This document shows, in pieces, positions 1 through 14,219 of a stretch of 64,000 bases of DNA (positions within the stretch are counted from its first letter, which is position 1; each line of letters begins with the position of its first letter). Made by a program: the position numbers and the translations under genes. The notes under the pieces were generated by a model. It worked only from the letters and a program-made list of their open reading frames with translations, did no database searches and had not been told where the DNA came from. The stretch lies in NCBI RefSeq assembly GCF_015689175.1, contig NZ_CP065047.1, forward strand, positions 682,001 through 746,000, in the 5' to 3' direction. This stretch comes from Mycobacterium kubicae (lineage in GTDB: Bacteria; Actinomycetota; Actinomycetes; Mycobacteriales; Mycobacteriaceae).

Positions 1-145
1 ATTGCCGGTGCTGCGGCTACAGGCGCTGCTGTGCCGGTCGCGCGGCAACGAAGCCGGGTATCGAGAGTTCGTGCACCGCTTCCGGACCCAGGCGATAGCA
101 GCCGAATTCGAAGGGGCGCGCGCGCAGGCCGAATCGATGGCCTGA
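1..145 (+). CDS. C-terminal end of a probable adenylate-cyclase/LuxR-type AAA regulator (partial)
   Basis: The gene starts before the window. A frame is open from base 2 to a TGA at 143-145 and encodes 47 residues. The segment NEAGYREFVHRFRTQA followed by an FEGARAQAESMA end resembles the conserved tail of large mycobacterial proteins with a cyclase domain, an ATPase domain and TPR-like repeats (pattern NEAxYRDFxxRYRAMA, then GFEGHxxxAEAM). Only the tail is visible, so catalytic domains cannot be assessed. It converges on the DUF3060 gene with about 10 bases between stops. The family call is from recalled similarity and is moderate. Confidence 0.5.
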   Translation, partial: LPVLRLQALLCRSRGNEAGYREFVHRFRTQAIAAEFEGARAQAESMA

Positions 146-155
146 TCGCCCGATA

Positions 156-833
156 TCAGCCCTGCTCGATCGTGTTGGAGCCGCCGGGGTTACTGATTTT
201 CGGCGAGCCGGAGTGGTAGGTGATTTTGTTGTTCATGCCGGCTGCCGTGATGGTGTCGGCGGCGTCGACGGTGATGACGTTGTTCATCCCCGACACGCTG
301 ATCTTGGTGCAGTGACCGCTGATCACAACGGTATTGGACATGCCGGTGATGCTCACGACGCTGTCGTTGCAGGCGAGATTTCTGTTCTCGTTCATGCCCG
401 TGACGGTCAGACTCTCCCCGCGTTTCGCGGTGGTGCTCGGTGCGGCACTGCCCGGCGGGCTGCTGAGCATCGAGGTGCTGTCGCTGGGCGGAGTGACGAC
501 GATGTCGGCGCGGTGCAGTTGCCGCGAGGCGTAGAGGGCGATGGCGCCGACCCCGACCAACACGCCAACGATGAAGAGCGCGGCCAGAATCCAGAACACT
601 CGCGAACCCGAGGACGAGCGCGGCGTCGCCCCGGGAAAGGGGCTGCCGTAGCCGTACGAGGGCGGTGGTGCCAGCTGTCCCGGCGGTGGCGGCACCGGAC
701 CGGGCGGCGGCGGGACAGGCCCCGGTGGGGGTCGGTAGCCGCCCGCACCGCCCAGCTCTGAGGCGTGCGCCGCGTCGGCCAGCGGCTGTTCGAGCTGCCG
801 GATCCGAAGTTCGGGATCATCCTCTGGATTCAT
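156..833 (-). CDS. DUF3060 domain membrane protein (Rv0314c-like)
   Basis: 225 residues starting at ATG 833 (MNPEDDPELR). Upstream in-frame extension is ignored because it runs through the start of the divergent oxidoreductase gene. Layout: short charged N-terminus, a Pro-rich stretch with PPPPGPV repeats (about residues 35-65), one transmembrane helix (VFWILAALFIVGVLVGVGAI), then an exported C-terminal domain with the repeated SITGMSN/SVSGMNN/TAAGMNN motif typical of DUF3060, a beta-solenoid-like fold of unknown function. Length and order next to the GH16 glucanase gene match Rv0314c of M. tuberculosis. Function is unknown; a cell-envelope location is likely. Confidence 0.8.
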   Translation of the reverse strand: MNPEDDPELRIRQLEQPLADAAHASELGGAGGYRPPPGPVPPPPGPVPPPPGQLAPPPSYGYGSPFPGATPRSSSGSRVFWILAALFIVGVLVGVGAIALYASRQLHRADIVVTPPSDSTSMLSSPPGSAAPSTTAKRGESLTVTGMNENRNLACNDSVVSITGMSNTVVISGHCTKISVSGMNNVITVDAADTITAAGMNNKITYHSGSPKISNPGGSNTIEQG

Positions 834-879
834 GAACAGATGCTCCCATACCGGCATCGATGCCGAATAGGCTCGCAGC

Positions 880-1893
880 GTGCCTGAATTGTTGAACCGC
901 CAGATTCTCTTGCGTCGTCGGCCGACCGGACTGGTGGCACCCGATGACACCGAGATGGTCACCGCGCCGGCGCCCGAGCCTGCCGACGGTGAGGCGTTGC
1001 TGCGTACCACCTACGTGGGCATCGACGCCGCCGCCCGCACCTGGCTGGACGACCAGCCCAGCTACCTTCCGCCCGTGGGGCTGGGTGAGGTCATCCGAGC
1101 GGCCGGGATCGGCGAGGTCGTCGCATCCCGGTGTGACGCCTACGCCGTCGGCGACATCGTCACCACACTCACCGGATTCCAGGAGTACGTCTTGATCCGC
1201 GATGACGTCTTCAGCACGCCCATCCCCGGTGAGGACGATCAGCTGGCGATCATGTCGGTGTACGGGCCCACAGGAGCCACCGCCTACTTCGGGATGACCG
1301 ACATCGGTCGGCCGCAGCCCGGTGAGACGGTGGTGGTCTCGGCGGCCGCCGGTGCCACCGGGTCGGTGGCCGGACAGATCGCCAAGATCGCCGGAGCGCG
1401 GGTGGTGGGGATCGCCGGCGGACCACAGAAGTGCCGGGCGGTGGTGGAGGAGTTCGGCTTTGACGCGTGCATCGATTACAAGGCCGGTGACCTGGCGGCC
1501 GCGCTCAAGGAGCACTGCCCCAAGCGGGTCGACGTCTACTTCGACAATGTCGGCGGCCCGATCCTCGACGCGGTATTGGGCCGCCTGGCGCACAAGGCGC
1601 GGGTGGTGTTGTGCGGCGTCATCTCCAGCTACTTGACCGGTGAGCATCCCGGGCCGGCCAACTATGTGAACCTGCTCGCCAAAACGGCTTTGATGCAAGG
1701 CTTTAACGCGCTGGACCAGTGGGGCCGCTTCGATGAGGCGTTCGCCAACCTGCGGCAATGGGAGGCCGAGGGTCGGCTCCGGCACCGGCAAACCATCTTT
1801 GACGGCATCGAATCCTGCGTCGACGCTCTCAACGGGCTGTTCACCGGCGCCAACATCGGCAAGACGCTGGTCAAGATCAGCGAACCCAGCTGA
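880..1893 (+). CDS. NADP-dependent oxidoreductase, MDR / prostaglandin-reductase-like (zinc-free)
   Basis: 337 residues from GTG 880. It looks like the medium-chain reductase branch that reduces activated alkenes or quinones with NADPH (CurA/YncB/PTGR type). Visible marks: MPELLNRQILLRRRPTG N-terminus, a Rossmann nucleotide-binding segment VSAAAGATGSVAGQIAKI (about residue 150) of the AATGxVG class, and YFDNVGGPILDAVL (about 222), which is characteristic of this subgroup. No catalytic or structural zinc cysteine cluster is seen. It is divergent from the DUF3060 gene across 46 bases, so both promoters must sit there. It separates the Rv0314c-like and Rv0315-like genes, which I recall as neighbours in M. 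tuberculosis. The substrate cannot be deduced. Confidence 0.85.
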   Translation: MPELLNRQILLRRRPTGLVAPDDTEMVTAPAPEPADGEALLRTTYVGIDAAARTWLDDQPSYLPPVGLGEVIRAAGIGEVVASRCDAYAVGDIVTTLTGFQEYVLIRDDVFSTPIPGEDDQLAIMSVYGPTGATAYFGMTDIGRPQPGETVVVSAAAGATGSVAGQIAKIAGARVVGIAGGPQKCRAVVEEFGFDACIDYKAGDLAAALKEHCPKRVDVYFDNVGGPILDAVLGRLAHKARVVLCGVISSYLTGEHPGPANYVNLLAKTALMQGFNALDQWGRFDEAFANLRQWEAEGRLRHRQTIFDGIESCVDALNGLFTGANIGKTLVKISEPS

Positions 1894-1908
1894 TATCGTC
1901 TGCTGCTT

Positions 1909-2742
1909 ATGCCGCAGATGGATCGTCGCCGGATGATCATGATCGCCGGATTCGGCGCATTGGCGGCCGCCATGCCCGCTCCCGAAGCGCCGGCTGCACC
2001 GGCGACCGGGGCAGCGGGTGGCTACCTCTGGCATGACGAGTTCGACGGCCCGGCGGGCTCGGCGCCCGACGCGTCGAAGTGGCAGGTGTCGAACTTCCGC
2101 ACCCCGATCCGGAACCCGGTCGGATTCGACCGGCCCGAGTTCTGGGGCCAGTACCGCGACAGCCGCCAGAACGTGTTCGTGGACGGCAAGTCGAACTTGG
2201 TGCTGCGGGCCACCAAGGACGGCAACCAATACTTCGGCGGTTTGGTGCACGGGCTGTGGCGCGGCGGCGTCGGGACCACCTGGGAAGCCCGGATCAAGTT
2301 CAACTGCCTCGCACCTGGCATGTGGCCGGCGTGGTGGCTGTCCAACGATGACCCCGGCCGCAGCGGCGAAGTCGACGTGATCGAGTGGTACGGCAACGGC
2401 ACCTGGCCCTCGGGAACCACCGTGCACGCCAATCCCGACGGCACGGCGTTCGAGACCTGCCCGTTCGGCGTCGACGGCGGATGGCACAACTGGCGCGTTC
2501 GCTGGGACCCGGCCGGCATGTACTTCTGGCTCGACTACGCCGAGGGCATGCAGCCCTATTTCTCGGTACCGGCGACCGGCATCGAGGACCTGAACGAACC
2601 CATCCGGGAGTGGCCGTTCAACGACCCGAGCTACACGATGTTCCCGGTGCTCAATCTGGCGGTCGGTGGTTCGGGGGGCGGTGATCCTGCGGCGGGCAGC
2701 TATCCGCAGGAGATGCTCGTCGACTGGGTGCGCGTCTTCTAG
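1909..2742 (+). CDS. Secreted glycoside hydrolase family 16 beta-1,3-glucanase (Rv0315-like)
   Basis: 277 residues. The N-terminus MPQMDRRRMIMIAGFGALAA has a twin-arginine motif followed by a hydrophobic stretch and Ala-Pro-rich region, so export by Tat is likely. The GH16 catalytic signature E-x-D-x-x-E is present as GEVDVIEWYG (about residue 158), giving nucleophile and acid/base glutamates. WPAWWLS before it and DGGWHNWRVRWDP after it are also typical of laminarinase-type GH16 enzymes, which hydrolyse beta-1,3-glucan. It starts 16 bases after the oxidoreductase stop, so cotranscription is possible. It matches Rv0315 in motif and position. ATG 1918 is an alternative start that keeps the RRR motif. 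Confidence 0.9.
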   Translation: MPQMDRRRMIMIAGFGALAAAMPAPEAPAAPATGAAGGYLWHDEFDGPAGSAPDASKWQVSNFRTPIRNPVGFDRPEFWGQYRDSRQNVFVDGKSNLVLRATKDGNQYFGGLVHGLWRGGVGTTWEARIKFNCLAPGMWPAWWLSNDDPGRSGEVDVIEWYGNGTWPSGTTVHANPDGTAFETCPFGVDGGWHNWRVRWDPAGMYFWLDYAEGMQPYFSVPATGIEDLNEPIREWPFNDPSYTMFPVLNLAVGGSGGGDPAAGSYPQEMLVDWVRVF

Positions 2743-2755
2743 AGTCGAATCAACC

Positions 2756-3241
2756 GTGTCCTCTGACGGCCCTTCGCCCGAACAAATCGATGCTGTCCTG
2801 CGGGCGACGCGGGCCATGGTCGGGATCGCCGCGGCGTCCATCGCCGAGGTCGACGACACCGTCACCGTGCCGCAATTGCGGGTGCTGGTGATGGTCGACA
2901 CCAGGGGCCCGTTGAATCTGGCCGGGGTGGCGGCCGGTTTGGGCGTCAACCCGTCGAACGCCAGCCGCATCTGTGACCGCCTGATCAAGGCGGGCCTGCT
3001 GAACCGTCAGGAAGCCGCCGACGATCGGCGCAACATCACCTTGACGCTCTCCGCGGCGGGACGGCAACTGGTGGACAAGGTGATTGAGCACCGCCGCACC
3101 GCCATCATCCGCGTGCTGGGCGACATGGAGCCCGAGGACCGGGAGGCGCTCAAGACGGCCCTCGACCGGTTCGCCACCGCGGCGGGTGAGCCGATGGCCG
3201 CCGACGCGGCCACCATGATCTGGCCCGGGCAACCGTCATGA
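2756..3241 (+). CDS. MarR family transcriptional regulator
   Basis: 161 residues from GTG 2756 (VSSDGPSPEQ). The frame is open further upstream but that part lies inside the glucanase gene. The winged helix-turn-helix is visible: VPQLRVLVMVDTRGPLNLAGVAAGLGV, recognition helix NPSNASRICDRLIKAGLL, and wing RQEAADDRRNITLTLSAAG, with the DDRR wing motif typical of MarR. Its TGA overlaps the ATG of the muconolactone-isomerase-like gene (ATGA), so the two are translationally coupled. MarR proteins usually respond to small aromatic or phenolic ligands, which fits the neighbour, but the ligand and operator are not shown by the sequence. Confidence 0.85.
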   Translation: MSSDGPSPEQIDAVLRATRAMVGIAAASIAEVDDTVTVPQLRVLVMVDTRGPLNLAGVAAGLGVNPSNASRICDRLIKAGLLNRQEAADDRRNITLTLSAAGRQLVDKVIEHRRTAIIRVLGDMEPEDREALKTALDRFATAAGEPMAADAATMIWPGQPS

Positions 3242-3855
3242 CGGAGTTCCTGGTCGTCATGAGCACCCAGGTACCCGACGGCACGGCAGACGGTGAGGTC
3301 GACGCGGTTCGTGCCCGCGAGGCCGCGCACTCCCGCCAACTCGCGGCCCAGGGGCACCTGCTGCGGCTGTGGCGCCCACCGCTGCAGCCAGGGGAGTGGC
3401 GCACCATCGGGTTGTTCGCCGCAGCCGACGGCACTCAACTCGAGCAGGTGCTCGCGGGGATGCCGCTGCGGATCTGGCGCACCGACGAGGTGACCGCGCT
3501 GGACTCCCATCCCAACGACCCGTCGGGTAGCGGCGTCGCTCGCCGGCCGGGTCGGGGACCGGAATTCTTGATCACCATGACGATCACGGTGCCGCAGGAC
3601 ACCCCGGCCGACGTCGTCGAGGAGACCACCCGGCGAGAGGCGGCCCGCGCCCGGGATCTGGCCGGACGCGGACATCTGGTGCGGCTGTGGGCGTTGCCGC
3701 CGGGACCGGACGGCCGGCGCACCCTGGGTTTGTGGCGCGCTCGTGATCCCGGCGAGCTCATGACGATCCTGGAATCGCTACCGCTTTCGGGCTGGATGAC
3801 CATCGAGACGACAGCGCTGAGCCCGCACCCCAACGACCCGATCCGGCTGGGCTGA
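3238..3855 (+). CDS. Duplicated muconolactone delta-isomerase-like protein (Rv0316-like)
   Basis: 205 residues in two homologous halves of about 90-95 residues. Half one begins EFLVVMSTQVPDGTADGEVD and half two EFLITMTITVPQDTPADVVE. Both contain a REAA-RxLAxxGHLxRLW core and both end near HPNDP. This is the ferredoxin-like fold of muconolactone isomerase (CatC), which acts in the 3-oxoadipate pathway as an oligomer of single domains. Here two domains are fused, as in the annotated possible muconolactone isomerase Rv0316. No other pathway gene (catA, catB, pcaD) lies nearby, so the natural substrate is uncertain. Coupled to the upstream MarR gene. Confidence 0.8.
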   Translation: MTEFLVVMSTQVPDGTADGEVDAVRAREAAHSRQLAAQGHLLRLWRPPLQPGEWRTIGLFAAADGTQLEQVLAGMPLRIWRTDEVTALDSHPNDPSGSGVARRPGRGPEFLITMTITVPQDTPADVVEETTRREAARARDLAGRGHLVRLWALPPGPDGRRTLGLWRARDPGELMTILESLPLSGWMTIETTALSPHPNDPIRLG

Positions 3856-3859
3856 CCGG

Positions 3860-4087
3860 TCAGTTGGTCAGGTACAGGTACCAGAGCCCGTCGTCGTGCT
3901 GTCGACAGTCGAAGTGTGTGTAGGCCCCGTCGTTGTGGGTGATCTCGACGTGCGGGCCGTCGGCCTGACAAGCCGCCAGCGTCGCGTAGTTGCCCTCCAC
4001 TTGGACTTCGTCGGCGTTGGCGACGCCCACCGACATGGTCATCAGACCCCCGCACGCCAGCGCTGCAGCAGCAAAGATTCGTTTCAC
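3860..4087 (-). CDS. Small secreted protein, unknown function
   Basis: 75 residues from GTG 4087 (VKRIFAAAALACGGLMTMSV). A Sec signal peptide is clear: Lys-Arg, a hydrophobic core, then VGVANADE with cleavage likely after NA-D or ANA. The mature part is about 48 residues with two cysteines (ATLAACQADGP and THFDCRQH), probably one disulfide, and aromatic residues near the C-terminus (GLWYLYLTN). It ends head-on against the muconolactone-isomerase-like gene with 4 bases between. Small exported proteins of this style are common in mycobacteria; I do not recognise the family. Confidence 0.7.
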   Translation of the reverse strand: MKRIFAAAALACGGLMTMSVGVANADEVQVEGNYATLAACQADGPHVEITHNDGAYTHFDCRQHDDGLWYLYLTN

Positions 4088-4178
4088 CTGGACCCCTTTC
4101 GTATGGGCGTCGAATTGCCCATGTCGGCACCGGTGAAACCCCTGCCGCGTCCACATCTATCGAACCTATGATCGAACG

Positions 4179-4484
4179 ATGGGCGAGCTCGCCGCTATCG
4201 GATACAACGGGCAACCGGTCCGCGGCCCGTTTCGCGTGGTCCGCCCGCCGATCGCGGTGCTGGTCGACCTGACGGTGCTCTTCCCGCGCGAGCCACACCG
4301 CACCGGCCGGTATCAACCCAACGGTCTGCAGTTGCACAAGGTGGTCGAGGGCCGGCTGAGTTGCTGGGGCATCTGCGAGCAGGGCGATTGGTGGGGGTTG
4401 GTGACCTACCCGGTGCAGTTCGGCTCCCAGCGCAAAACCGTCACCCACTGGGTTCCGGCCTGGACGCTGCGCCGAAAACGCTAG
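4179..4484 (+). CDS. Conserved hypothetical protein, 101 residues
   Basis: Starts at ATG 4179 (MGELAAIGYNGQPV) and ends RRKR. No signal peptide or transmembrane segment. The protein is Trp-rich near the C-terminus (WGICEQGDWWGLVTYPV and HWVPAWTLRRK), which suggests a small compact beta fold. It is divergent from the small secreted protein gene and ends about 40 bases before the PAP2/kinase gene on the same strand, so it may be its operon partner. I do not recognise the family. Confidence 0.65.
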   Translation: MGELAAIGYNGQPVRGPFRVVRPPIAVLVDLTVLFPREPHRTGRYQPNGLQLHKVVEGRLSCWGICEQGDWWGLVTYPVQFGSQRKTVTHWVPAWTLRRKR

Positions 4485-4525
4485 TTGCGGTCACCGCGAT
4501 GGGCGCGGCCCTTAGGGTGGTGCGG

Positions 4526-6016
4526 GTGAATCGTCGGCCCTGGCAGCGTGCACGCAGCATCAAACAGATCACCCGAGGCCTTGGTGCCCTGGACCGCGAG
4601 CTCTTCGAGGCGATCGCCGAGACGCCTACCCCGCTGCTCGACCGGGTGATGCCGCCGCTGACCCGCGCGGCCGATCATTCCAAGCTGTGGTTCGCCCTGG
4701 CCGGTCTGTTGTTTGCCTCACGAAACAACTCCGCGCAGCGCGGGGCCGTCCGCGGCGTCGCCACCCTCGGGGTTACCAGTCTGTTCGCCAATCAGATCGC
4801 CAAACGCGTCCGCCCGCGGGCGCGGCCGCTCTATGACTCGGTGCCCCTGATCAGGCAGGTGCGCCGGCGGCCGACGTCCAATTCGTTCCCCTCCGGGCAC
4901 TCCGCCAGCGCGGCGGCGTTCGCCGTCGGCGTAGGGCTGGAGAACCCGCCCCTGGGCTTCGGCCTGGCCTTGCTGGCGGGTTTGGTCGGCCTGTCGCGGG
5001 TGGCCGTGGGGGCGCACTACCCCGGCGATGTGCTGGCCGGATTCGGCCTCGGCGCGGGCATCGCGGTGTTGGGCGGCCGCCTGGTGCCGCCGGTCGTGGA
5101 GACTCAGCTGCCCAAGACCGAGCCGCTGTGGATCGATACGCCGGAACGGCCCGACGGCTCGGGAGTCGTGCTGGTGGTCAACCCGGCCTCGGGCAGCGGC
5201 ACCGGGGCGCGGGTCGCCGACGAGGTGCGGGCCGCGTTACCCAAGGCCGAGATCATCGAGTTGGGGGATGACGACGAGCCGTTGGACGTGCTGCGTAGCG
5301 CCGCCGAACGTGCCGAGGTGCTCGGCGTGGCGGGCGGTGACGGCACCGTGTCGACGGGGGCCGCCGTCGCGGTCAACGCGGGTCTGCCGTTAGCGGTTTT
5401 TCCCGCAGGCACCTTCAACCATTTCGCCAAGGACATCGGGTGCGACACGGTGGCCAAGACCGTCGAGGCGATTCGGCGGGGCACGGTGTCGTGCGTAGAC
5501 CTGGTGTGTCTCAACGAAACTCGCATGGTGGTCAATACGGCCAGCATCGGGGCGTATCCGCTGTTCGTGCAGAAGCGCGAAAAACTCGAAAAGCGTATCG
5601 GCAAACCCTTGGCAGGGCTGTACGCCATGCTGCAGACGCTGCGCCACGACCAGCCGGTGCGGATCACCTACGACAACAAGACGTTGCAGACGTCGCTGTT
5701 CTTCATTGGCAATTCGCTCTATCTGCCAACGGGTTTCGCGCCGTCCCGGCGTACCCGGATGGACGACGGCCTGATCGACGTGCGCATCCTCGAGACCGGA
5801 CGCCGACTGGCGCGCACCAGGATCCTGGTTGCCCTGATGTTCGGCCGCCTCGAGCGCAGCCCGCTCTATCACGAGATGCAGGTGCCGCAGTTCAGCTTCA
5901 AGGTCCTCGACGCGCCGACGGTGATCGCCCGCGATGGTGAGGTCAGCGAGGAATACGACCATGCCACCTTCGCGGCGCAGTACCGGGCGCTGTCGGTGTT
6001 CCGGCCGCGGTCCTGA
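4526..6016 (+). CDS. PAP2 phosphatase fused to diacylglycerol/sphingosine-kinase-like domain
   Basis: 496 residues from GTG 4526, chosen because AGGGTGG lies just upstream; ATG 4499 would add 9 residues. The N-terminal half is a PAP2 membrane phosphatase with KRVRPRARPLYD, NSFPSGHSASAAAF and SRVAVGAHYPGD, the three conserved PAP2 blocks holding the catalytic His and Asp, plus hydrophobic helices. The C-terminal half is a DAGK_cat/LCB5 lipid kinase: VVLVVNPASGSGTG, GGDGTVSTGAA and FPAGTFNHFAKDIG. The fusion joins opposing activities, dephosphorylating a polyprenyl or phosphatidyl phosphate and phosphorylating a lipid alcohol. A role in envelope lipid recycling is inferred. It converges on xylB. 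Confidence 0.85.
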   Translation: MNRRPWQRARSIKQITRGLGALDRELFEAIAETPTPLLDRVMPPLTRAADHSKLWFALAGLLFASRNNSAQRGAVRGVATLGVTSLFANQIAKRVRPRARPLYDSVPLIRQVRRRPTSNSFPSGHSASAAAFAVGVGLENPPLGFGLALLAGLVGLSRVAVGAHYPGDVLAGFGLGAGIAVLGGRLVPPVVETQLPKTEPLWIDTPERPDGSGVVLVVNPASGSGTGARVADEVRAALPKAEIIELGDDDEPLDVLRSAAERAEVLGVAGGDGTVSTGAAVAVNAGLPLAVFPAGTFNHFAKDIGCDTVAKTVEAIRRGTVSCVDLVCLNETRMVVNTASIGAYPLFVQKREKLEKRIGKPLAGLYAMLQTLRHDQPVRITYDNKTLQTSLFFIGNSLYLPTGFAPSRRTRMDDGLIDVRILETGRRLARTRILVALMFGRLERSPLYHEMQVPQFSFKVLDAPTVIARDGEVSEEYDHATFAAQYRALSVFRPRS

Positions 6017-6020
6017 AATA

Positions 6021-7412
6021 TCAAGTGCCTTCGGTCAAGTCGCGCACCTGCGCATAGCGTTCCCAGACCGCCGGCACCGGGTCGGCGCAGTATTGCTCGG
6101 TCGGCGGGGGCTGCCAGCGCGGCGGTTGCGGCGATCCGGCCAGCGCCCACGCGGCTTGGCGTGCCGCGCCCAGCGCGACGTATTCGGCCGGGCGGGGCAC
6201 CAGCACCGGCATCCCCAAGATGGCGGGCGCTATGCGGCGCAACGCTTGGGATCTGGCGCCGCCGCCCACCAGCATGATCCGGCGCACCACGACTCCGTGG
6301 CGGGTGAGCTGGGCCAGGCCGTCGGCCAGCGCGCACAGGAGCCCTTCCACCGCGGCGCGCGCCAGGTTGGCCGGCGTGGCGTTGGCGATCCGTAGCCCGT
6401 GTAGCGCGCCAGAGGCGTTGGGGCGGTTGGGGGTTCGCTCACCTTCCAGGTACGGCACCAGTACCAGGCCCTGGCTGCCCGGGGCTGCCGAGAGTGCGAG
6501 CCTCGACAGTTCCTCGTGGTCGACCCGCAGCATGGTGGCGGCGGCATCTAGCACGCGGGCGGCGTTGAGCGTGCAAACCAGCGGCAGGTAGCGTCCGGTG
6601 CCGTCGGCGAATCCGGCGACGTATCCGGCTTCGTCGCGAATGGGGTCGGCGACGACGGCGGCCACCACCCCCGAGGTGCCGATGGACACGATCACATCGC
6701 CCTCTGCCGCACCCAACCCCAGCGCCGCGGCGGCGTTGTCGCCGAGTCCCGCCCCGAACGTCGCCATGTCCGCAGTGATTTTCTCCGACGGGCCAGTCAC
6801 TTTCGGCACTTGCGGGCGGCGACCCCGCATGCCCAGCTCGAGCAGATCCAGGCGGTAGGCACCGGTCGCGGCGTCGAAGTAGCCGGTGCCGCTGGCGTCG
6901 CTGCGGTCGGTGGTCAGCGTCGCGACGTCGCCCTCACCACGCAGCCGCCACGTCAGCCAGTCGTGCGGTAGGCAGACGGCCGCCGTGTGGTCGGCATGCC
7001 GTGGCTCGTGGTCGGCGAGCCAACGCAACTTGGCCACCGTGACGGCGGCCAGTGGCACCACACCCACGGCCTGGGCCCACGCCCGGCTTCCGCCGAGTTC
7101 GTCGACCAGAGCGCGGGCCGCGTCGGCCGATCGCACGTCGTTCCACAGCAGCGCGGGCCGAATCACCCGACCGGTCTCGTCAAGGCACACCATGCCGTGC
7201 TGCTGTGCGCCGACGGCCACGGCGGCGACGTCGTCGAACCCGCCCGCCGCAGCGATCGCGCTGCGCGCGGCGGATTCCCATGCGGCAGGATCGATTTCGG
7301 TGCCGTCGGGGTGAGGGGCGCGGCCTTGGCGCACCACCGCACCGGTTTCGGCGTCGCACACCATTACCTTGCAGGACTGGGTGGAGGAGTCGACGCCGGC
7401 GACCAGCGTCAC
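6021..7412 (-). CDS. xylB: Xylulokinase (FGGY family carbohydrate kinase)
   Basis: 463 residues from GTG 7412, which overlaps the stop of the polyol dehydrogenase gene by 4 bases (GTGA). FGGY kinases phosphorylate sugars; this one has the xylulokinase pattern: [15 protein letters not shown] phosphate loop at the N-terminus, VGAQQHGMV substrate motif (about residue 72), [24 protein letters not shown], and the C-terminal ATP-binding [18 protein letters not shown]. The expected reaction is D-xylulose to D-xylulose 5-phosphate, feeding the pentose phosphate pathway. Coupled translation with the dehydrogenase suggests a two-step polyol (D-arabinitol or similar) catabolic route. Confidence 0.9.
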
Positions 7413-8809
7413 GTCTTGTCCGCGAGCAATGCCCGCAGCGTCGCGCGGGCACCGTCGCGGTGCAGGGAGTGCAGCGCCCACAGATAGGGCTCGACGAAGC
7501 GCGGGTGGTCGACCAGGTCTCCGAAGATGGACCGGTTCGCCAGGAAAGCGGTCGGGTTGTCACGCTGTGCCCGCGCGAGCGGAATCAGTGCATCGGCCTG
7601 CTCGTCGACCACGTCTATCGGTTGGCCGTCCTCGTCGATGCCCTCGGCGTAGCGGGCCCAGCTGGCCACGATGGCTGCGGACAGCCGCACCGGTCCGCCG
7701 GATCGGAGGTTGTCGTGAACCACCGGCAGTATCCACCTGACGATGCGGTTGGAGGAGTCGGCGCACAGTCTGACGACGGTGTCGCGGAGATGGGGGTTGG
7801 TGAAGCGGCCTAGCAGGCCGTCCCGGAATTCGGTCAAACCCGGTACCGGCGTCAGGGTCACCATGGCCTCGGAATCCATGTAGCGGGAGATGAGCTCGAG
7901 GATGGCCGGATCCTGGGCGGCCTCGTGCACCAAGCGGTAGCCAGCCAGGTAGGCGAAGTAACACAGGCCCTGGTGGCTGCCGTTGAGCAGTCGTAGCTTC
8001 ATCCGCTCGTAGGGCGAGACGTCGTCGACCAGCCGGACGCCCGCCTCTTCCAGGGGCGGACGGCCGTCGGCGAAGTCGTCTTCCAGAGCCCACATGGCGA
8101 ACGGTTCTGTGACCACCGGCCAGGCGTCGTCGATGCCGTATTCCTGAGCCAGTTGCTCGATCATCTGCGGCGTGGTGATGGGGGTGATCCGGTCGACCAT
8201 CGAGCTGGGAAATTTGACGTGGTCGGCGATCCATTGCGCCGCTTGGGTATTGACCTGTCGCGCATACGAGGTGAAGGCGGCCCGCGCCACCTGCCCGTTT
8301 TCGACGATGTTGTCACACGACATGATGGTGGGGGCCGGGAGGTTTCGCTGACGGCGCCGGTTCATTGCTTCGGTCACCAACGGGAACACGGCACTGAACG
8401 GTGACTGGTAGCCGCCCTCGGTGATGGTGAGCGAGATGATCCGGGTGCTCGCCGCGGCCAGCAGTTCGATCACCGCCTCGGGTTCATCGGGCGCATAGCG
8501 GAAGTCGACGATGGAGCCGATGACGCGTGCTTCGTTGCTGCCGTCGGGGTGCTTGCTGATCAGCGTGTAGAGGTGGTCTTGACGACGCAGCACATCTTGC
8601 ATTCGCTTGTTCTCCGGCAGCACGCCGACGCCGCAGATTCCCCAGTCCAGCGCCAAGCCCTTGTTCATCAGGTCGTCGAGGTAGCACGCCTGATGCGAGC
8701 GGTGAAAGCTGCCGAAGCCGAAATGAACCACGCCAACCGTGATTCGGCTGCGGTCATAGCGCGGAACCGGAATCGACAAAGCGCCGAGGTTCTGCGCGCT
8801 GAGCCTCAC
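7409..8809 (-). CDS. Mannitol/arabinitol-type polyol 2-dehydrogenase
   Basis: 466 residues from GTG 8809, with AGGAGG 8 bases upstream. It is a long-chain, zinc-independent polyol dehydrogenase. The Rossmann start is [22 protein letters not shown] in two conserved blocks (GFGSFHRSH, then YLDDL), and the catalytic Lys-Asn-His set is in [11 protein letters not shown] (about residue 290). Family members oxidise D-mannitol to fructose or D-arabinitol to D-xylulose with NAD. Because the next gene is xylulokinase, D-arabinitol is the more economical guess, but mannitol is possible. No transporter lies adjacent. About 120 bases of non-coding DNA upstream hold the probable promoter. Confidence 0.9.
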
Positions 8810-8933
8810 CGACGTACCTCCTACGAATGCCTTGCGTGCGGATATCGCAATCTTTACAACAAAAGGTTTGGCGAAAGATAACTTAGGGAACAGCCTGCGT
8901 ACTTAAGTGGCGCAGCTAATGAAAGGACACGTT

Positions 8934-9241
8934 GTGAAACTAACTCTGCAAATCGTCGCGCCTGCTCTTGCCGCTCTCGCTGCGGGCGCCGTCCTGGCCG
9001 CGCCCGCCGCATCAGCGGATCCCAACGGTTTCCTCGACGAACTGCGCACCAACAACGCCCAACCGCCCAATATGACTCCTGGCCAGGTCATCAATGCCGG
9101 ATACCAGACATGCGGCGACATCCGGGCGGCACCTCCATCCTCGACGAGATGAGCAAGGTCGAGCAGCGGTACCACTTCAGCCAGGGTACGTTGTTCGTCA
9201 GTGCCGCGACGACGAATCTGTGCCCGGACGCTCCCCACTGA
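8934..9241 (+). pseudogene. DUF732-like secreted protein with one-base frameshift
   Basis: Start GTG 8934 after AAAGGA; signal peptide VKLTLQIVAPALAALAAG then AAPAASADPNGF. The first frame reads to GYQTCGDIR (codon ending 9125) and then hits a stop at 9150-9152. Shifting by one base at 9125 restores GGTSILDEMSKVEQRYH, then FVSAATTNLCPDAPH to TGA 9239-9241. The two cysteines typical of the family (TCGD and NLCPD) fall on either side of the shift, so both parts clearly belong to one gene. The span is 308 bases, one short of a whole number of codons, and the site is a G run (CCGGGCGG). It is either a real decayed gene or a single-base sequencing error. Confidence 0.7.
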
Positions 9242-9247
9242 GCCCGG

Positions 9248-10327
9248 TCAGGGGTTGCGGACGCAGTCGTAGGTGAGGTTGATGTCGGGGCCCAGGTCGA
9301 CGACTTCGAACTGGTCGACCCCGATGTTGCTGAACGAGCCCGCACTGATGCCCAGGTTCGACCACTTGGCGGTGCTGGTGCGGTCGTCGGCGAAGGTCAG
9401 TGGAATCTCACCGCCGTCGGCAAGGAGCATGCCGTAGGTCTTGAGCGCTTTGATGATCACTTTCTCTGACGCGGAGAATTTGGACTCGTCGAAGTCGGCC
9501 TTCAGCCGGAACCGCGCCCCGTACGGCGGCGCATTCGGGTCGGTGCTCTGCGGGCCCCCGGCGTGTGTCGCCGGACGCACGTAGACGCCCTCCTTCATGT
9601 GGCTGTTGGGCAGGATGAAGCGCAGCGGGTGGTTCACCGCACCGGCCGCAACCTCGTCCGCGGTCGGCAGCATCGCAGCGATCGGGAACCCGGCGGCGTC
9701 GGCGCTGGTGCACTGATCGCCGCGCAGCGTCGCCGGATACTGCTTTTCCAGGTCCCACACGAAAAAGCCCACGGCGGCAATAGAATCGCCCTTCTTCGTG
9801 CCCTGATAGATCTCGTAGAGCTTGTGCTCGTCGCGCTCGACGACGAGCAGGTGGCAGTCGCCCTGGCCCTCGGTGTTGCCGGACGGGTCGCAGGTCAGAT
9901 CTGACGACCCCTCGATGTAGGCGTTGGCCGGCACCGGCATGCGGGCCGGCACCCGGTCACAGTCCGGGCCGCCGAAGCAGTATTCCTCGGCGCCGACGAC
10001 TTGCATGCGCGGTGTGTGGCTGTCGGCGTAGAAGACCGGAATCGAAAAGTCGATCTGGAAGGTGTTGTTGTTGCCCCAGCCGCCCAGGTTGCCGAGTTCC
10101 TGGGTAATCGCGCTGCTGCGTTGGGCTACCGGCGATCCGCTGACGTTGCCGCTGAAGGGCTCGGTGACTTCGAACAACGCCCCGGGCGCCGCACCGGTCG
10201 GGCCGGCGCTCGGTTTTGCGCTGGTGGTTGAGCCCTGCTTGCTGGTGGCGCCGCTGTGACAGCTGGTGCACACCATCGCCGCGGCGCAGAGCGCGACGAA
10301 AACTTTGCTGATACCGCTGCTTGGCAT
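9248..10327 (-). CDS. Secreted lipoprotein of unknown function
   Basis: 359 residues from ATG 10327. The N-terminus MPSSGISKVFVALCAAAMV is a signal peptide ending in the lipobox CTSC, so lipidation at that Cys and anchoring to the membrane are expected. A Ser/Thr/Ala linker follows. The mature domain contains several cysteines in pairs (EEYCFGGPDCDRVP, DLTCDPSG, GDCHLLVVE) and ends INLTYDCVRNP; it has the look of an extracellular beta-rich binding protein. It converges on the DUF732 gene. No close family comes to mind and no substrate can be inferred. Confidence 0.75.
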   Translation of the reverse strand: MPSSGISKVFVALCAAAMVCTSCHSGATSKQGSTTSAKPSAGPTGAAPGALFEVTEPFSGNVSGSPVAQRSSAITQELGNLGGWGNNNTFQIDFSIPVFYADSHTPRMQVVGAEEYCFGGPDCDRVPARMPVPANAYIEGSSDLTCDPSGNTEGQGDCHLLVVERDEHKLYEIYQGTKKGDSIAAVGFFVWDLEKQYPATLRGDQCTSADAAGFPIAAMLPTADEVAAGAVNHPLRFILPNSHMKEGVYVRPATHAGGPQSTDPNAPPYGARFRLKADFDESKFSASEKVIIKALKTYGMLLADGGEIPLTFADDRTSTAKWSNLGISAGSFSNIGVDQFEVVDLGPDINLTYDCVRNP

Positions 10328-10389
10328 GCGCGCAGATTAGCTGGCATGCCCGCTTCGCTACGTGAATTGGGCGGATTCATATTTTGCGG

Positions 10390-11277
10390 CTACGCCGGCC
10401 CCATCGACACCAACGTGAACGTTCGGACCCGTCCCGGGGTCGAGGCGCGACACATGGACAGCAGCGGATCGGACATCTGCTCGGCGAGGACGACTTCGGT
10501 GTGCTGCTGCGGGCCGGCGAGTATCACCCGAATGGTGTGGTCGTCGTGACGGACGTCGAGCGGCGACAGGGCCGCGATGTGGTCCTCGCCGGTGGCCTTG
10601 CGAACGAAATACTGCGCGGCTTGAACCGCGTGGGGAAGCGAGGTGCGGCCCCGCAGGAACTCGTTGTGCAACCGCCCGTCCAGGTAGAGCCGCACCAACT
10701 CGGCCGAGTCGGCGGTGTCGACCCGTCCATAACACAACCCTTCGGGCAGGATGAGCATCGTGGCTGCGAATCGGTCGCCACCCAAATGCGAACATTCCCA
10801 AGTCAATTCGGGATACTGCTGGGCAATCGCCTTGGTGGCGCTGCGGCCCCGCACGGCGCAGCACTGATCGTGCTTGCCGTGGGCGCAGACCACGACGAGC
10901 GGCCCGTCGTAGGGTTGGCCGTCGGATCCGTCCAGCGCGACTTCCAGGAGGTCGGTGGGGGCGGCTACCTCACCGGCGAACATCGCCTCGGTGCCTTCCC
11001 GCGCGTCGGCGATGAACCAGCGCCACCGCGGCACGGCGGGGCGCCGGCCGGGGCGGCGGATGGCGGCGATCCGAAAGCCGGCCGCTTCCACCCGACGGCA
11101 GATCGCGCGGCCGAGTCCGGGTTCGATCACCGCGGGGGATTGCAGGAACGCCGAAGGTCCCCAGCCGCCGGACAATTCGACGAGCATCCACCGGGCGCCC
11201 GCCGACGCCGTGCCGTACATCGGATCGTTGCGCGCCAAAGATTGGTCACTGCAGGGGATGCGCTTGCCCGCCGTCAT
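10390..11277 (-). CDS. Suc/Fer-like (sucrase/ferredoxin-like) thioredoxin-fold protein
   Basis: 295 residues from ATG 11277, whose first base pairs overlap the TGA of the cupin gene (ATGA). Longer upstream reading is inside the cupin gene. The C-terminal part has VVVCAHGKHDQCCAVRGRSA and WECSHLGGDRFAATM, the Cys/His pattern of the Suc_Fer-like family, a thioredoxin-like fold related to [2Fe-2S] ferredoxins (as in Apd1). IPCSDQSLARNDPMYGTA at the N-terminus is also typical. The likely role is electron transfer or metal/redox handling. Its tight coupling to an Fe(II) oxygenase-type gene suggests it serves that enzyme; this is inference. Confidence 0.8.
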   Translation of the reverse strand: MTAGKRIPCSDQSLARNDPMYGTASAGARWMLVELSGGWGPSAFLQSPAVIEPGLGRAICRRVEAAGFRIAAIRRPGRRPAVPRWRWFIADAREGTEAMFAGEVAAPTDLLEVALDGSDGQPYDGPLVVVCAHGKHDQCCAVRGRSATKAIAQQYPELTWECSHLGGDRFAATMLILPEGLCYGRVDTADSAELVRLYLDGRLHNEFLRGRTSLPHAVQAAQYFVRKATGEDHIAALSPLDVRHDDHTIRVILAGPQQHTEVVLAEQMSDPLLSMCRASTPGRVRTFTLVSMGPA

Positions 11278-12506
11278 CGAAGCTCGGTCGGATCGCCGTG
11301 GCGCACCGGGACGATGACGGCTTCCCGCAGCAGCCGCCGGATCAACACCGTCGCGTCGGCGCGGTCCAGGCCGGGCAGCGAATCGGCGTCGGCGACCACG
11401 CCGCGATGCAGCGCATTGACTGCGGCCGCGCACAGCACCGGGAAGGTGATGGTGCGGTCGGGCAGGCGCAAGACGAGCTTGCCGTCCAGCTCGTCAAGCG
11501 TTGCGATCAGCCCGTGGCGCCACGTCACTTTCGTGGCGGCGGCCTGTTCGGAGGCCGCGAACGCGGCCAGCGGGCGCACCGATACGGGCCGGGTCCGGTC
11601 GGCGTGCCGGCGCGACAACCGGCCGGCCGCGGTGTCACCGACTTCCGCGGCGCGGTAGCGCAGGGTGTCGACCACCTCGGCGGCGATCTTGGTGGTCAGC
11701 GATGCCATCTCGTCATGGTCGGCGGGGTCGATGCCCATCGGCAATGACTTCCGGAACTCCGGCATGGTGGCCAGTACATCAGCGATGGTCCGGACGACGT
11801 CCACAGCGGTCAGGGCGGACACGCCGACGGTGAGGTGGATCGAGATGTTCTCCAGCGCCTCGGCGGCGTGCACCCAACCGCGCGGCAGGTACAGCGCGTC
11901 GCCGGGGGACAAGACGGTGTCGACCACGGGCTGCTGGTCGCGGACGCGCCGGGAGATCGCGTCGCGGTGATCGGTCCACGGCTGGGACGGCAGCGGGTCG
12001 ACGTGCACCGGTTCGTGCACAATCCAGCGTTTGGTGCCGGCCACCTGCAACACGAACACGTCGTGGACGTCGTAGTGCGGATCGAAGCCGCGGTTGTCGG
12101 GCGGGGTGATGTAGGCGTTGGCCTGGGTGGGATGGCCCAGATCGTCGACCATGGCCCGGACGAAGTCGATGAGCGGCGGCCACAGGCGATGCAAACCCTG
12201 CAAGACGATGGTCGCGCCGGCGGCGAACTGCCCGAGAACCTTGGCCGAATCCACCTGGTCAGGCATCTCGGCACCGAAACCCGCGGGGCCCAGGAAGCAG
12301 TCCTTCGCCAGCAATTCACCGTGCCGGGCCATGCGGATGAACGGCGCACGCACCCCTCGTTCGGCGATCAGCTCGTCGACCGCTGCGGGCGACAGCAAGT
12401 CGTCGAAGTCGCGCGGCAGATCATCGGCGCGGCTGAGCAGTGGCCTACGCCCCCAATACCGGGTCGCGAACGACCCGGTATCGGTGGCGATACAACGGCT
12501 CAGCAT
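11274..12506 (-). CDS. JmjC/RoxA-type cupin, probable Fe(II)/2-oxoglutarate protein hydroxylase
   Basis: 410 residues from ATG 12506, 10 bases after the stop of the repeat-peptide gene. The open frame extends upstream but there it is only the out-of-phase reading of that peptide's repeats. Iron ligands are visible as HYDVHD (HxD, about residue 205-210) and a distal His in PRGWVHAAE (about 270); GTKRWIVHEP offers the Lys expected to hold 2-oxoglutarate. The N-terminal FATRYWGRRPLLSR fits the FxxxYWxKxPL start of Cupin_4/RoxA-MINA-NO66 proteins, and the C-terminal 100 residues look like their winged-helix domain. Relatives hydroxylate ribosomal protein side chains; here the neighbouring peptide is the likely substrate. 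Confidence 0.8.
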   Translation of the reverse strand: MLSRCIATDTGSFATRYWGRRPLLSRADDLPRDFDDLLSPAAVDELIAERGVRAPFIRMARHGELLAKDCFLGPAGFGAEMPDQVDSAKVLGQFAAGATIVLQGLHRLWPPLIDFVRAMVDDLGHPTQANAYITPPDNRGFDPHYDVHDVFVLQVAGTKRWIVHEPVHVDPLPSQPWTDHRDAISRRVRDQQPVVDTVLSPGDALYLPRGWVHAAEALENISIHLTVGVSALTAVDVVRTIADVLATMPEFRKSLPMGIDPADHDEMASLTTKIAAEVVDTLRYRAAEVGDTAAGRLSRRHADRTRPVSVRPLAAFAASEQAAATKVTWRHGLIATLDELDGKLVLRLPDRTITFPVLCAAAVNALHRGVVADADSLPGLDRADATVLIRRLLREAVIVPVRHGDPTELR

Positions 12507-12516
12507 CGCAGCGAGG

Positions 12517-12765
12517 TCAGGCCGTCCCGTCGGCTCCGCCGTCGTGGCCCTCGGGGTTCGAGCCGCCGTCGGCGGTTCCCTCGCCGCCCGCGGTGCCGTC
12601 GGCTCCGCCGTCGTGGCCCTCGGGGTTCGAGCCGCCGTCGGCGGTTCCTTCACCGCCCGCGGTGCCGTCGGCTCCGCCGTCGTGGCCTTCAGGGTTGGAG
12701 CCGCCGTCGGCGGTTCCTTCGCCGCCTGCGCCGCTGGTGGTGATGTCGTCGTCATCGAGTGCCAT
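12517..12765 (-). CDS. Small repetitive peptide, candidate precursor of a modified (RiPP-like) peptide
   Basis: 82 residues from ATG 12765, preceded by AAGGAGAGG at ideal spacing. Layout: acidic leader-like start MALDDDDITTSGA, then three identical 23-residue repeats. Each repeat reads GGEGTADGG, SNPEGHDGG, ADGTA. Composition is Gly, Asp, Ala, Glu, Thr, one His and one Asn per repeat, with no Lys, Arg, Cys or aromatic residue. Such a chain will not fold as a globular enzyme; it is either a metal-binding peptide or a substrate. The stop is 10 bases before the cupin gene, and about 160 bases of non-coding DNA lie upstream, so this is the first gene of a three-gene unit. I do not know a characterised homologue. 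Confidence 0.75.
   Translation of the reverse strand: MALDDDDITTSGAGGEGTADGGSNPEGHDGGADGTAGGEGTADGGSNPEGHDGGADGTAGGEGTADGGSNPEGHDGGADGTA
12520..12726 (-). repeat. Three 69-bp in-frame tandem repeats in the peptide gene
   Basis: Three consecutive 69-base units encode the same 23 residues. Units one and two (in plus-strand order) are almost identical in DNA; the third differs at a few silent positions, for example CCTTCAGGG against CCCTCGGGG. Conservation of protein with silent DNA change indicates selection on the repeat peptide rather than very recent slippage alone. Confidence 0.85.
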
Positions 12766-12924
12766 GGTGAGCCTCTCCTTGTCGATTTGCCTTGCGTCGT
12801 CGGCAGGACGTCGGGCTGGTGGGTGACCTGCGTCGGCGGCACACGCTGGACAGCGCGCGCCATGACGTTTTCCCCGCCACATGTGCAGATCAAACCGGAC
12901 GGCAGCGGGCAGATTAGCGCGTCC

Positions 12925-14061
12925 TCACATCTTGCGCAGTCCGCGCAGGATCTTCATGAAGGGCAAGGCGGTGGACAGGCCGCGGCGGAGTTTGGGCTGG
13001 ATGGGGCTCGCGTTGAGCAGCACCGGGTACCGGACACCGTGATCGCGGTAGGCGGCGAGCTGATCGAGGATCTCGTCAGCCGTTCCGGTGAGCAGGCCTT
13101 GCCGCAGCAACGACAGCGGCGCCGCGGCGACGTAGGAGAGCACCGTCTCCTCGTCGAGTAACTGGGGCAGGATGTCCTGAAAGCCGGTGAAGCCTGCTCC
13201 CATCGGATGGCGCGCACCGTGGTTGGCCCACTCCGAGTCCGGCAGCAGAAGCGAATATGCCCGCACGGGAACGGAATCTAAGGCTTCGTCGACCTCGGCC
13301 GCGCTGCGCCCGGTGACGACGAATTGGGCGTTCGCCGCGATGATGGAGTGTGGGTCGCGATCGGCATCGTCGGCAGCGGTCCGCACCTGGTGCAACCCTG
13401 CTGCGTACCGTTCCGGGCTGAAGACCGACACCGGGAACCACGCATCGCCGTAGCGACCGGTCGCGCGCAGCATCCGCGGTCCATGCGAAGCGATCCAGAT
13501 CTGCGGCCAGGTGCCCTTCACCGGTGGCAGGCTGAAGATCGCGCTGCGCAGCGGGAAGTATTCCGAATCTCGGTTGACCAGTTGCCCTTTGGAGTTCCAC
13601 AGGGCGCGGATGGTGGCCAGCGCCTCTTCGAACCTTGCCACCGGCTTGGACCAGTCCACGCCGTACGGCTCGTTGCCTTCGCGCTCACCGGTCCCGATTC
13701 CGAGGACCGCCCGGCCACGGGTCATCTGGTGCAGCGTCGCCGCGGCCTGCGCCGTCACGGCGGGATTGCGGCGTGCGCTGTCGGTGACCCCGACGCCCAA
13801 GCGGGTCCGGCCGAATCGGTGCCGGCCTGCGAGCGACCCCAGCGTCGTCCACGGTTCGAGGAACGCGTCGGCATCGGGCACCAACCGGGCTATCCCGCTG
13901 TACTTCGGTGTCATCACGGCGCGGGGCAAAAAGCCGTTGAGGTGATCGGACAACCAGTATGAATCGGCGCCGGTCACCGCGGCCGTACGGTAACCCATTT
14001 CGGCCGCCAGCATCGGCGCGAACCGGCTGTGCAAAGGTGCTTCGACGACACCGAATTTCAC
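12925..14061 (-). CDS. LLM-class F420-dependent oxidoreductase
   Basis: 378 residues from ATG 14061. The TIM-barrel luciferase-like fold is indicated by MKFGVVEAPLHSRF, SYWLSDHLN near residue 40, LGVGVTDSARRNPAVTAQAAATLH, and RAVLGIGTGEREGNEPYG followed by RFEEALATIRALW. PQIWIASHGPRMLRATGRYGDAW completes the coenzyme-binding pattern. Mycobacterial members use F420 to reduce or oxidise lipids, alcohols or xenobiotics; the N-terminal style recalls phthiodiolone ketoreductase (Rv2951c) relatives. The substrate is not deducible. It lies upstream of the repeat-peptide cassette on the same strand, but the 160-base gap argues for separate transcription. Confidence 0.88.
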   Translation of the reverse strand: MKFGVVEAPLHSRFAPMLAAEMGYRTAAVTGADSYWLSDHLNGFLPRAVMTPKYSGIARLVPDADAFLEPWTTLGSLAGRHRFGRTRLGVGVTDSARRNPAVTAQAAATLHQMTRGRAVLGIGTGEREGNEPYGVDWSKPVARFEEALATIRALWNSKGQLVNRDSEYFPLRSAIFSLPPVKGTWPQIWIASHGPRMLRATGRYGDAWFPVSVFSPERYAAGLHQVRTAADDADRDPHSIIAANAQFVVTGRSAAEVDEALDSVPVRAYSLLLPDSEWANHGARHPMGAGFTGFQDILPQLLDEETVLSYVAAAPLSLLRQGLLTGTADEILDQLAAYRDHGVRYPVLLNASPIQPKLRRGLSTALPFMKILRGLRKM

Positions 14062-14219
14062 TGCATGCCCCCGGTTGATGTGGCCAGACGTACCAGCGGT
14101 TGGCCATTAACGCTAGGCAGGGCAACGCAAATCGGACTAGCCGTCGCGCGCGGCCGTGTGGCCACACCGTGCAAACTCGCCGACGAGGCCGTCAGAGCGC
14201 TGGCGCCAACGGGGACGTG

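What the first reader, a model, noticed from the sequence alone, without database searches (positions are those of the whole stretch)
10390..12765. Three-gene cassette: repetitive acidic peptide, JmjC-type cupin, Suc/Fer-like protein (candidate hydroxylated RiPP system)
On the minus strand an 82-residue peptide with three identical 23-residue repeats is followed 10 bases later by a RoxA/MINA-type cupin (HYD and distal VHA iron ligands, GTKRW), whose stop overlaps the next gene (ATGA), a thioredoxin-fold Suc/Fer-like protein. The peptide has one Asn, one His and several Asp per repeat and cannot fold as an enzyme, so a substrate-enzyme-redox partner unit is the simplest reading. Known relatives of the cupin hydroxylate ribosomal proteins; a dedicated peptide substrate would be unusual. 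The system may already have a name I do not recall.
Basis: partly seen in the sequence, partly recalled or inferred. Interest (0 to 1): 0.85.

Follow-up and report, generated by a model that had tools for sequence, protein, structure and literature searches.

The report
Repeat peptide paired with JmjC oxygenase
A small aspartate-rich repeat peptide is encoded directly in front of an iron-dependent, protein-hydroxylating type of enzyme in many bacteria of the phylum Actinomycetota, and the two have evolved together, which suggests that this enzyme, often labelled a ribosome modifier, really acts on its own peptide.

Summary
The 82-aa peptide (three identical 23-aa repeats), the JmjC_2 cupin 10 bases later and the ATGA-overlapping Suc/Fer-like gene are all there. 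The peptide gene is under strong protein-level purifying selection (median dN 0.054, dS 0.664). None of 15 more distant JmjC cupins has it. 20 of 20 loci fetched from other classes carry an Asp-containing repeat peptide there. Repeat type (DGGAD or DADGTD) changes once on the cupin tree. Asp, Gly and Ala occur in all 155 distinct peptides, while 14 lack both Asn and His, so Asp is the likely target. Best reading: a minimal RiPP-like system in which a NO66-type oxygenase beta-hydroxylates Asp in a dedicated peptide. Suc/Fer is frequent but dispensable (168 of 183 loci). Chemistry and purpose are unproven. JmjC hydroxylases of RiPPs have precedent; this family was not found described.

The parts
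12775..12780 (-). Shine-Dalgarno-like AAGGAG, 9 nt before the peptide start
   Evidence: read; an SD-like tetramer in the 18 nt before the chosen start in 146 of 155 distinct peptide genes
12517..12765 (-). Aspartate-repeat peptide, 82 aa; proposed substrate (precursor)
   Evidence: purifying selection; homologues
12727..12765 (-). N-terminal non-repeat part MALDDDDITTSGA with acidic motif [DEN][DEN][DENS][IVMLT]; proposed leader/recognition sequence
   Evidence: motif in the first 20 aa of 132 of 155 distinct peptides; in other classes read in 15 of 20, and with one deviating letter in the other 5
12520..12726 (-). Three 69-nt / 23-aa repeats (12726-12658, 12657-12589, 12588-12520), 3 Asp each; proposed core
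   Evidence: all 9 repeat Asp invariant in 31 of 31
11274..12506 (-). JmjC_2 (PF08007) 2-oxoglutarate/Fe(II) oxygenase with NO66-like domain order; proposed peptide hydroxylase
12069..12077 (-). Iron ligands His144 and Asp146 (H-Y-D)
   Evidence: invariant in 27 of 27 aligned cupins
11868..11870 (-). Distal iron ligand His213
   Evidence: invariant in 27 of 27
11307..11528 (-). C-terminal region of the cupin (residues 327-400: four strands, then two helices and a strand), in the place of the winged helix of NO66; candidate leader-binding domain
   Evidence: secondary structure of the model; role inferred
10390..11277 (-). Suc/Fer-like (PF06999) protein with thioredoxin-like [2Fe-2S] ferredoxin domain at residues about 125-211; accessory
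10774..10887 (-). Putative cluster-ligand region: Cys131, His136, Cys139/Cys140, His164, Asp168
   Evidence: invariant in 24 of 24 and 14 of 14; 9 standalone homologues differ

Best explanation
The locus is a minimal ribosomally encoded, post-translationally modified peptide (RiPP-like) system. Shown: the peptide gene is conserved as protein; it is linked to one clade of JmjC_2 oxygenases in several classes of Actinomycetota; the cupin keeps a complete HxD...H iron site and NO66-like domain order; repeat type and cupin have co-diversified. Inferred: the acidic N-terminal motif (DDDITT / DEDIETV type) is recognised by the cupin's C-terminal domain, the flexible repeats are threaded through the oxygenase domain, and the enzyme adds oxygen (+16 Da each), most likely at the beta-carbon of Asp, giving a multi-(3-hydroxyaspartyl) peptide. 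The thioredoxin-like ferredoxin, where present, probably acts on the product or on iron bound to it rather than driving catalysis. Estimated probabilities: peptide is the cupin's substrate 0.9; Asp is the modified residue 0.7; ferredoxin acts downstream 0.4.
For: Adjacency in 156 of 164 distinct clade loci by script, the other 8 explained; 0 of 15 more distant JmjC cupins, 12 of which were put in the tree and fall beyond a 100/100 branch; 20 of 20 fetched loci in other classes have an Asp-containing repeat peptide. Median dN 0.054, dS 0.664; out-of-frame control 0.219, 0.043. Repeat type changes once on a tree of 63 cupins, support 99, shuffled mean 21. Asp in 155 of 155 distinct peptides; Asn absent in 36, His in 21, both in 14. 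Iron ligands and Lys159 invariant in 27 of 27. NO66, MINA53 and YcfD are the closest solved relatives. No third conserved neighbour: the commonest flanking family is in 7 of 85 loci. JmjC or related cupin-like hydroxylases of RiPPs exist: BipG and PbsQ (passages of PMC12707348 and PMC12257519).
Against: No direct evidence of modification. Gly and Ala are also in 155 of 155 and Ser and Thr in 154 of 155 each, so Asp is chosen partly on chemical grounds. 23 of 155 distinct peptides lack the N-terminal motif as scripted, a few of them because the script chose a late start. Two cupins without such a peptide (L204, L211) fall on the cassette side of the tree, on long branches, and the label 'repeat peptide' needs 4 changes there. 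No protease, exporter or immunity gene is conserved next door, unlike classical RiPPs. The comparison cupins keep the same iron site. No IdeR-type iron box is enriched upstream.
Confidence: 0.66

Rival explanations
1. The cupin is an ordinary ribosomal oxygenase (as public names say) and the peptide is an unrelated acidic protein that happens to be co-transcribed.
For: Closest solved structures are NO66, MINA53 and YcfD; public names include 'ribosomal protein L16 Arg81 hydroxylase' and 'NO66'.
Against: Linkage and co-diversification of peptide and cupin; separate from the mycobacterial JmjC cupins without peptide; 21 of 37 genomes of the same genus lack this cupin (G000-G036, some incomplete), which is odd for a ribosome modifier.
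Confidence: 0.08
2. The peptide is modified not at Asp but at another shared residue (backbone Gly, Ala, Ser/Thr, or His/Asn in the species that have them), or the oxygenase cross-links, decarboxylates or cleaves the chain.
For: Gly and Ala are in all 155 peptides; the repeat's His and Asn are invariant in 31 of 31 close homologues; NO66/MINA53 hydroxylate His (passage of PMC6006756); the biphenomycin JmjC enzyme BipG acts on Orn (passage).
Against: 14 of 155 peptides have neither His nor Asn, and most other-class peptides are Asp-Ala/Gly/Thr repeats.
Confidence: 0.22
3. The peptide is a metal-binding or structural acidic polymer that works unmodified, with the cupin acting on something else in the same process.
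For: Median net charge -18 and low complexity.
Against: The N-terminal motif is kept although it differs from the repeats, and repeat type tracks the oxygenase tree.
Confidence: 0.07
4. The small ORF is a regulatory upstream ORF (attenuator or coupling peptide) controlling cupin translation.
For: Short gap to the cupin (median: stop ends 13 bases before its start).
Against: dN/dS of about 0.08, lengths from 58 aa to over 100, gaps from -115 to +1, conserved internal repeats; no Rfam match in 9000-14200.
Confidence: 0.03

Closest known systems
Ribosomal oxygenases NO66/RIOX1, MINA53/RIOX2, YcfD/RoxA (JmjC_2, PF08007)
   Same: Same domain order and HxD...H iron site; best solved matches.
   Different: Own clade, adjacent repeat-peptide gene, usually a Suc/Fer gene; no ribosomal substrate shown.
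Biphenomycin-type RiPP clusters (JmjC hydroxylases BipG/BpmG, cupin-like PbsQ)
   Same: A JmjC or cupin-like oxygenase tied to hydroxylation of a ribosomal peptide (passages of PMC12707348 and PMC12257519).
   Different: Those clusters add MNIO, radical SAM, arginase-like and peptidase genes and modify a short motif; here one oxygenase and long Asp repeats.
Corallotide and related graspetides (repeat motifs plus 2OG oxygenase; SmaO making beta-hydroxyaspartate)
   Same: Long precursor with five repeated motifs hydroxylated by an oxygenase; Asp beta-hydroxylation precedent (passages of PMC13097080).
   Different: Graspetides need an ATP-grasp ligase; none among the two genes flanking the window cassette.
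JmjC-RRE fusions in RiPP-like contexts (Bregman et al. 2025)
   Same: They report RRE-like folds fused to PF08007 in fish and algae and say that the closest bacterial JmjC homologues (~30% identity) lie in RiPP-like contexts (section 6 of PMC12710340 read).
   Different: No repeat-peptide/Suc-Fer cassette is described in the section read.
Thioredoxin-like [2Fe-2S] ferredoxins Apd1/Aim32 (Suc/Fer-like)
   Same: Suc/Fer-like family; domain fold like the Aquifex thioredoxin-like ferredoxin.
   Different: The second His of the HX3H motif is an invariant Asp168, with an extra invariant His136.

Membership tests
RiPP (general) | Genetically encoded, translated precursor peptide | tested here: met
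   ORF, SD, median dN 0.054 / dS 0.664 over 30 comparisons; translation itself not observed
RiPP (general) | Distinct N-terminal recognition region plus variable core | tested here: inconclusive
   acidic motif in the first 20 aa of 132 of 155; in other classes 15 of 20, the other 5 with one deviating letter; binding not tested
RiPP (general) | Dedicated modifying enzyme encoded beside the precursor | tested here: met
   156 of 164 distinct loci by script plus 8 explained; 0 of 15 in the comparison group; that it modifies the peptide is not shown
RiPP (general) | Leader protease or exporter in the cluster | tested here: not met
   commonest flanking family in 7 of 85 loci, ORFs of 110 aa or more within the few kb held; many accepted RiPPs use distant proteases, so not decisive
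RiPP (general) | Modified peptide product | not testable with these tools
   needs mass spectrometry
JmjC_2 2OG/Fe(II) oxygenase, NO66/MINA/YcfD architecture | PF08007 match, HxD...H ligands, C-terminal winged helix | tested here: met
Ribosomal oxygenase (by function) | Hydroxylates a ribosomal protein | not testable with these tools
   no assay
RiPP recognition element (RRE) | Three strands then three helices, binds the leader | tested here: inconclusive
   C-terminal part of the model has four strands, then two helices; domain not folded or searched alone
Bis-histidinyl thioredoxin-like ferredoxin (Apd1/Aim32) | CX8C-Xn-HX3H ligand motif (passages of PMC8482512) | tested here: not met
   CX8C present, but HX3D in 24 of 24 and 14 of 14; 4 of 9 standalone homologues are also HX3D
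Suc_Fer-like (PF06999) | Pfam match above cut-off and thioredoxin-like ferredoxin fold | tested here: met
Graspetide | ATP-grasp ligase beside the precursor | tested here: not met
   the two genes flanking the window cassette have no such Pfam match; other loci not scanned gene by gene

The most novel reading that the evidence does not exclude
A phylum-wide, non-exported, aspartate-hydroxylated repeat polymer: an old offshoot of the ribosomal-oxygenase family makes multi-(3-hydroxyaspartyl) peptides inside the cell that bind iron or calcium, and the companion ferredoxin with its altered (HX3D plus extra His) cluster site reduces or reads out the bound metal. It would be a class of ribosomal metal-handling peptide without leader processing or export.
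Probability: 0.2. Interest if true: 0.9.

Novelty: new variant of a known kind. Interest (0 to 1): 0.77.

Why it matters
Databases label many of these enzymes 'ribosomal protein L16 Arg81 hydroxylase' or 'NO66' (names seen among the best 120 of 6122 and of 2958 homologues). If the peptide is the real substrate, many records are misnamed and a widespread protein-hydroxylation system in Actinomycetota has been overlooked. It would also support the idea that the eukaryotic ribosomal oxygenases NO66 and MINA53 are kin to bacterial peptide-tailoring enzymes, and would give a simple model, two or three genes, for substrate recognition by JmjC_2 enzymes with a C-terminal winged helix.

Tried and rejected
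Chance repeat: rejected by selection and linkage. Phage or plasmid cargo: P0002 by tblastn gave 109 plasmid records, all under 60% identity, and one weak phage record. Defence system: no PADLOC match. PHROGs match the cupin only through families of unknown function. Structured RNA: no Rfam match; RNA fold z-score -2.16, not surprising for a GC-rich repeat. Promoter scan: 0 found, uninformative. Iron-box control: best matches to an IdeR consensus (recalled) no better than shuffles, 9.52 against 9.63; mild evidence against simple iron regulation. Foldseek gave no significant match for the Suc/Fer model; the ferredoxin fold came from the second-look aligner. The RRE nature of the cupin C-terminus was not settled. 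Conserved neighbours: none beyond 7 of 85 loci (ORFs of 110 aa or more; some small families there are antisense artefacts).

Literature: ten searches ran; no listing described this cassette. Two works that could anticipate it are not held: Iyer et al. 2010 (NAR, gkq265; from memory its abstract mentions dioxygenases modifying glycine-rich collagen-like proteins in bacteria) and Xia et al. 2025 (jacs.5c07332, seen only in a reference list). Novelty is therefore provisional.

Counting notes: the 164 distinct loci come; one search kept the best 80 of 173 confirmed loci; 7 of the 78 genomes (the weakest hits) were not fetched; of 27 matching genomes from other classes, 20 were fetched. The comparison group was L131-L144 and L147 (13 from the same genus, 2 from the same order, whose genomes also carry the cassette); a sixteenth region fetched for it (L148) gave no cupin match and was dropped. 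One search gives 155 distinct peptides from 183 loci; it includes L197, whose start was placed far too early and whose acidic tail is not a clear repeat, and L208, whose start was placed late; it does not include the 20 loci. Earlier peptide counts with poorer starts are superseded. One search uses only the distinct 82-aa genes and compares each with the window, so pairs are not independent. The rows of the trees were chosen by hand; the repeat-type script was written after the tree had been seen, and the six 'other' rows were left out.
Full report
WHAT IS THERE. The three genes lie as described, on the minus strand of an unnamed mycobacterium whose cupin is 98% identical to one named Mycobacterium kubicae. 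The peptide (12765-12517) has 13 non-repeat residues and three identical 23-residue repeats. The cupin (12506-11274) follows after 10 bases; the Suc/Fer-like gene (11277-10390) overlaps its stop as ATGA. Pfam gives JmjC_2 (98.8 bits) and Suc_Fer-like (63.5 bits) and nothing for the peptide; NCBIfam has no match for any of the three. A longer ORF (121 aa) is open in the peptide frame, but the SD and the homologue L002, whose ORF opens at the same ATG, support 82 aa.

IS THE PEPTIDE REAL. Thirty-one distinct 82-aa genes, the window's included, give 30 comparisons with 139, 90 and 893 differences at codon positions 1, 2 and 3; median dN 0.054, dS 0.664; the +1 frame gives 0.219 and 0.043. All nine repeat Asp, and the repeats' Asn and His, are invariant in the 31. 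So the gene is kept as a protein in these relatives. Every comparison uses one reference, so the pairs are not independent.

Among 119 relatives, 65 have some match to the cupin. I read the 50 best-scoring loci: every one has the peptide just upstream, two of them interrupted (L004 by ambiguous bases and a frame change, L020 by a frame change in the last repeat). Of 80 named loci (the best 80 of 173: Mycobacterium, Mycolicibacterium, Gordonia, Williamsia, Antrihabitans, Dietzia), 79 passed a composition script and the 80th (L098) has both ends of the peptide around a run of N. In a class-wide sample 78 of 393 genomes match at E <= 1e-30; 7 of the 78 were not fetched. Pooled, the main clade (cupin 230 bits or more) has 184 loci, 164 distinct; 156 distinct have a scripted peptide, and the other eight are interrupted (L004/L118, L098, L020/L102, L053) or short/divergent acidic peptides seen by eye (L145, L198, L200, L201). 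One of the 156 (L197) is, like L198, acidic without a clear repeat. In the next band 8 of 10 have it, L203 and L204 not. The comparison group, 15 more distant JmjC cupins (28-40% identity; 13 from the same genus, 2 from the same order), has 0 of 15, and none has a Suc/Fer match. In a phylum sample 41 of 296 genomes match at E <= 1e-20; 27 of these are from other classes, and I fetched 20: all 20 have an Asp-containing repeat peptide upstream, 18 of the DADGTD/TDTD kind and two (L232, L238) with other repeats. The background rate of such ORFs away from the cupin is 17 of 5749.

CO-DIVERSIFICATION. A tree of 83 cupins puts 12 of the peptide-less mycobacterial cupins beyond a 100/100 branch; two other peptide-less cupins (L204, L211) fall on the cassette side, on long branches. 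Among 63 hand-picked cupins with repeat peptides, 34 have DGGAD-type and 29 DADGTD-type repeats; this character changes once on the tree (support 99), against about 21 in shuffles. The typing script was written after the first tree had been seen.

WHICH RESIDUE. Over 155 distinct peptides, Asp, Gly and Ala are in all; Ser and Thr in 154 each; His is missing from 21, Asn from 36, both from 14. Of the 20 peptides from other classes, 14 have neither in their last 60 residues. Asp is the constant residue with a known beta-hydroxylation precedent (FIH-type JmjC enzymes, recalled; SmaO, passage of PMC13097080). This step is inference.

THE N-TERMINAL MOTIF. An acidic motif of the DDDITT kind is in the first 20 residues of 132 of 155. 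In the 20 loci of other classes I read it, as DEDIETV and the like, in 15, and with one deviating letter in the other 5. Two other JmjC cupins outside the clade have small peptides with a similar motif: S. clavuligerus plasmid L213 (48 aa...EPDEIEVI..., Asp-Pro-rich tail) and L203 (45 aa...MDEIQVET..., Cys-containing tail). A cyanobacterial plasmid relative lies in a locus with a LanM gene. This fits a wider set of JmjC enzymes that tailor peptides.

NEIGHBOURHOOD. No other gene family (110 aa or more) is shared by more than 7 of 85 loci: no conserved protease, exporter or regulator. Either maturation uses distant genes or the product stays in the cell. No iron box was enriched upstream, which gives no support to a simple iron-regulated siderophore.

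VERDICT. The chemistry (Asp beta-hydroxylation) is likely, the purpose unknown; metal handling is the boldest reading. As JmjC hydroxylation of ribosomal peptides is known, I call it a new variant of a known kind. Ten literature searches listed no description, but two possibly relevant papers could not be read.

Noticed in passing
L213 (Streptomyces clavuligerus plasmid) 4769-6164 and flanks: JmjC cupin preceded by a 48-aa Asp-Pro-rich peptide with a DEIEVI motif, followed by S9 peptidase and ABC transporter genes: looks like a fuller RiPP cluster of the same enzyme family.
   Followed up: partly
L203, peptide ending about 219 bases before the cupin match: A 45-aa Cys-containing peptide (MDEIQVET motif, strong SD) precedes a JmjC cupin outside the repeat clade.
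   Followed up: no
L214 (Pseudanabaena galeata plasmid) 1-11149: JmjC cupin in a locus with a LanM synthetase and an NHLP secretion gene.
   Followed up: no
L141 (G077:C409): Two JmjC matches lie on this contig, with an 84-aa lanthipeptide-like small ORF upstream of the first.
   Followed up: no
L197 and L198: Cupins inside the repeat clade whose peptide is acidic but not a clear repeat, ending in ...GPTxEPGA, without a Suc/Fer match: a possible derived variant.
   Followed up: partly
L232 and L238: Divergent repeats (with TYGPRDA; PTEDDENLDAPGEHSQDTGDE) beside the cupin, and no Suc/Fer match in either.
   Followed up: no
window 10327-9248 (-): A 359-aa protein with a lipoprotein-like N-terminus just downstream of the cassette has no Pfam or NCBIfam match.
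   Followed up: no
L142, L143, L144 upstream of the distant cupins: Two similar 126-134 aa ORFs in tandem precede these JmjC cupins in three genomes; not identified.
   Followed up: no
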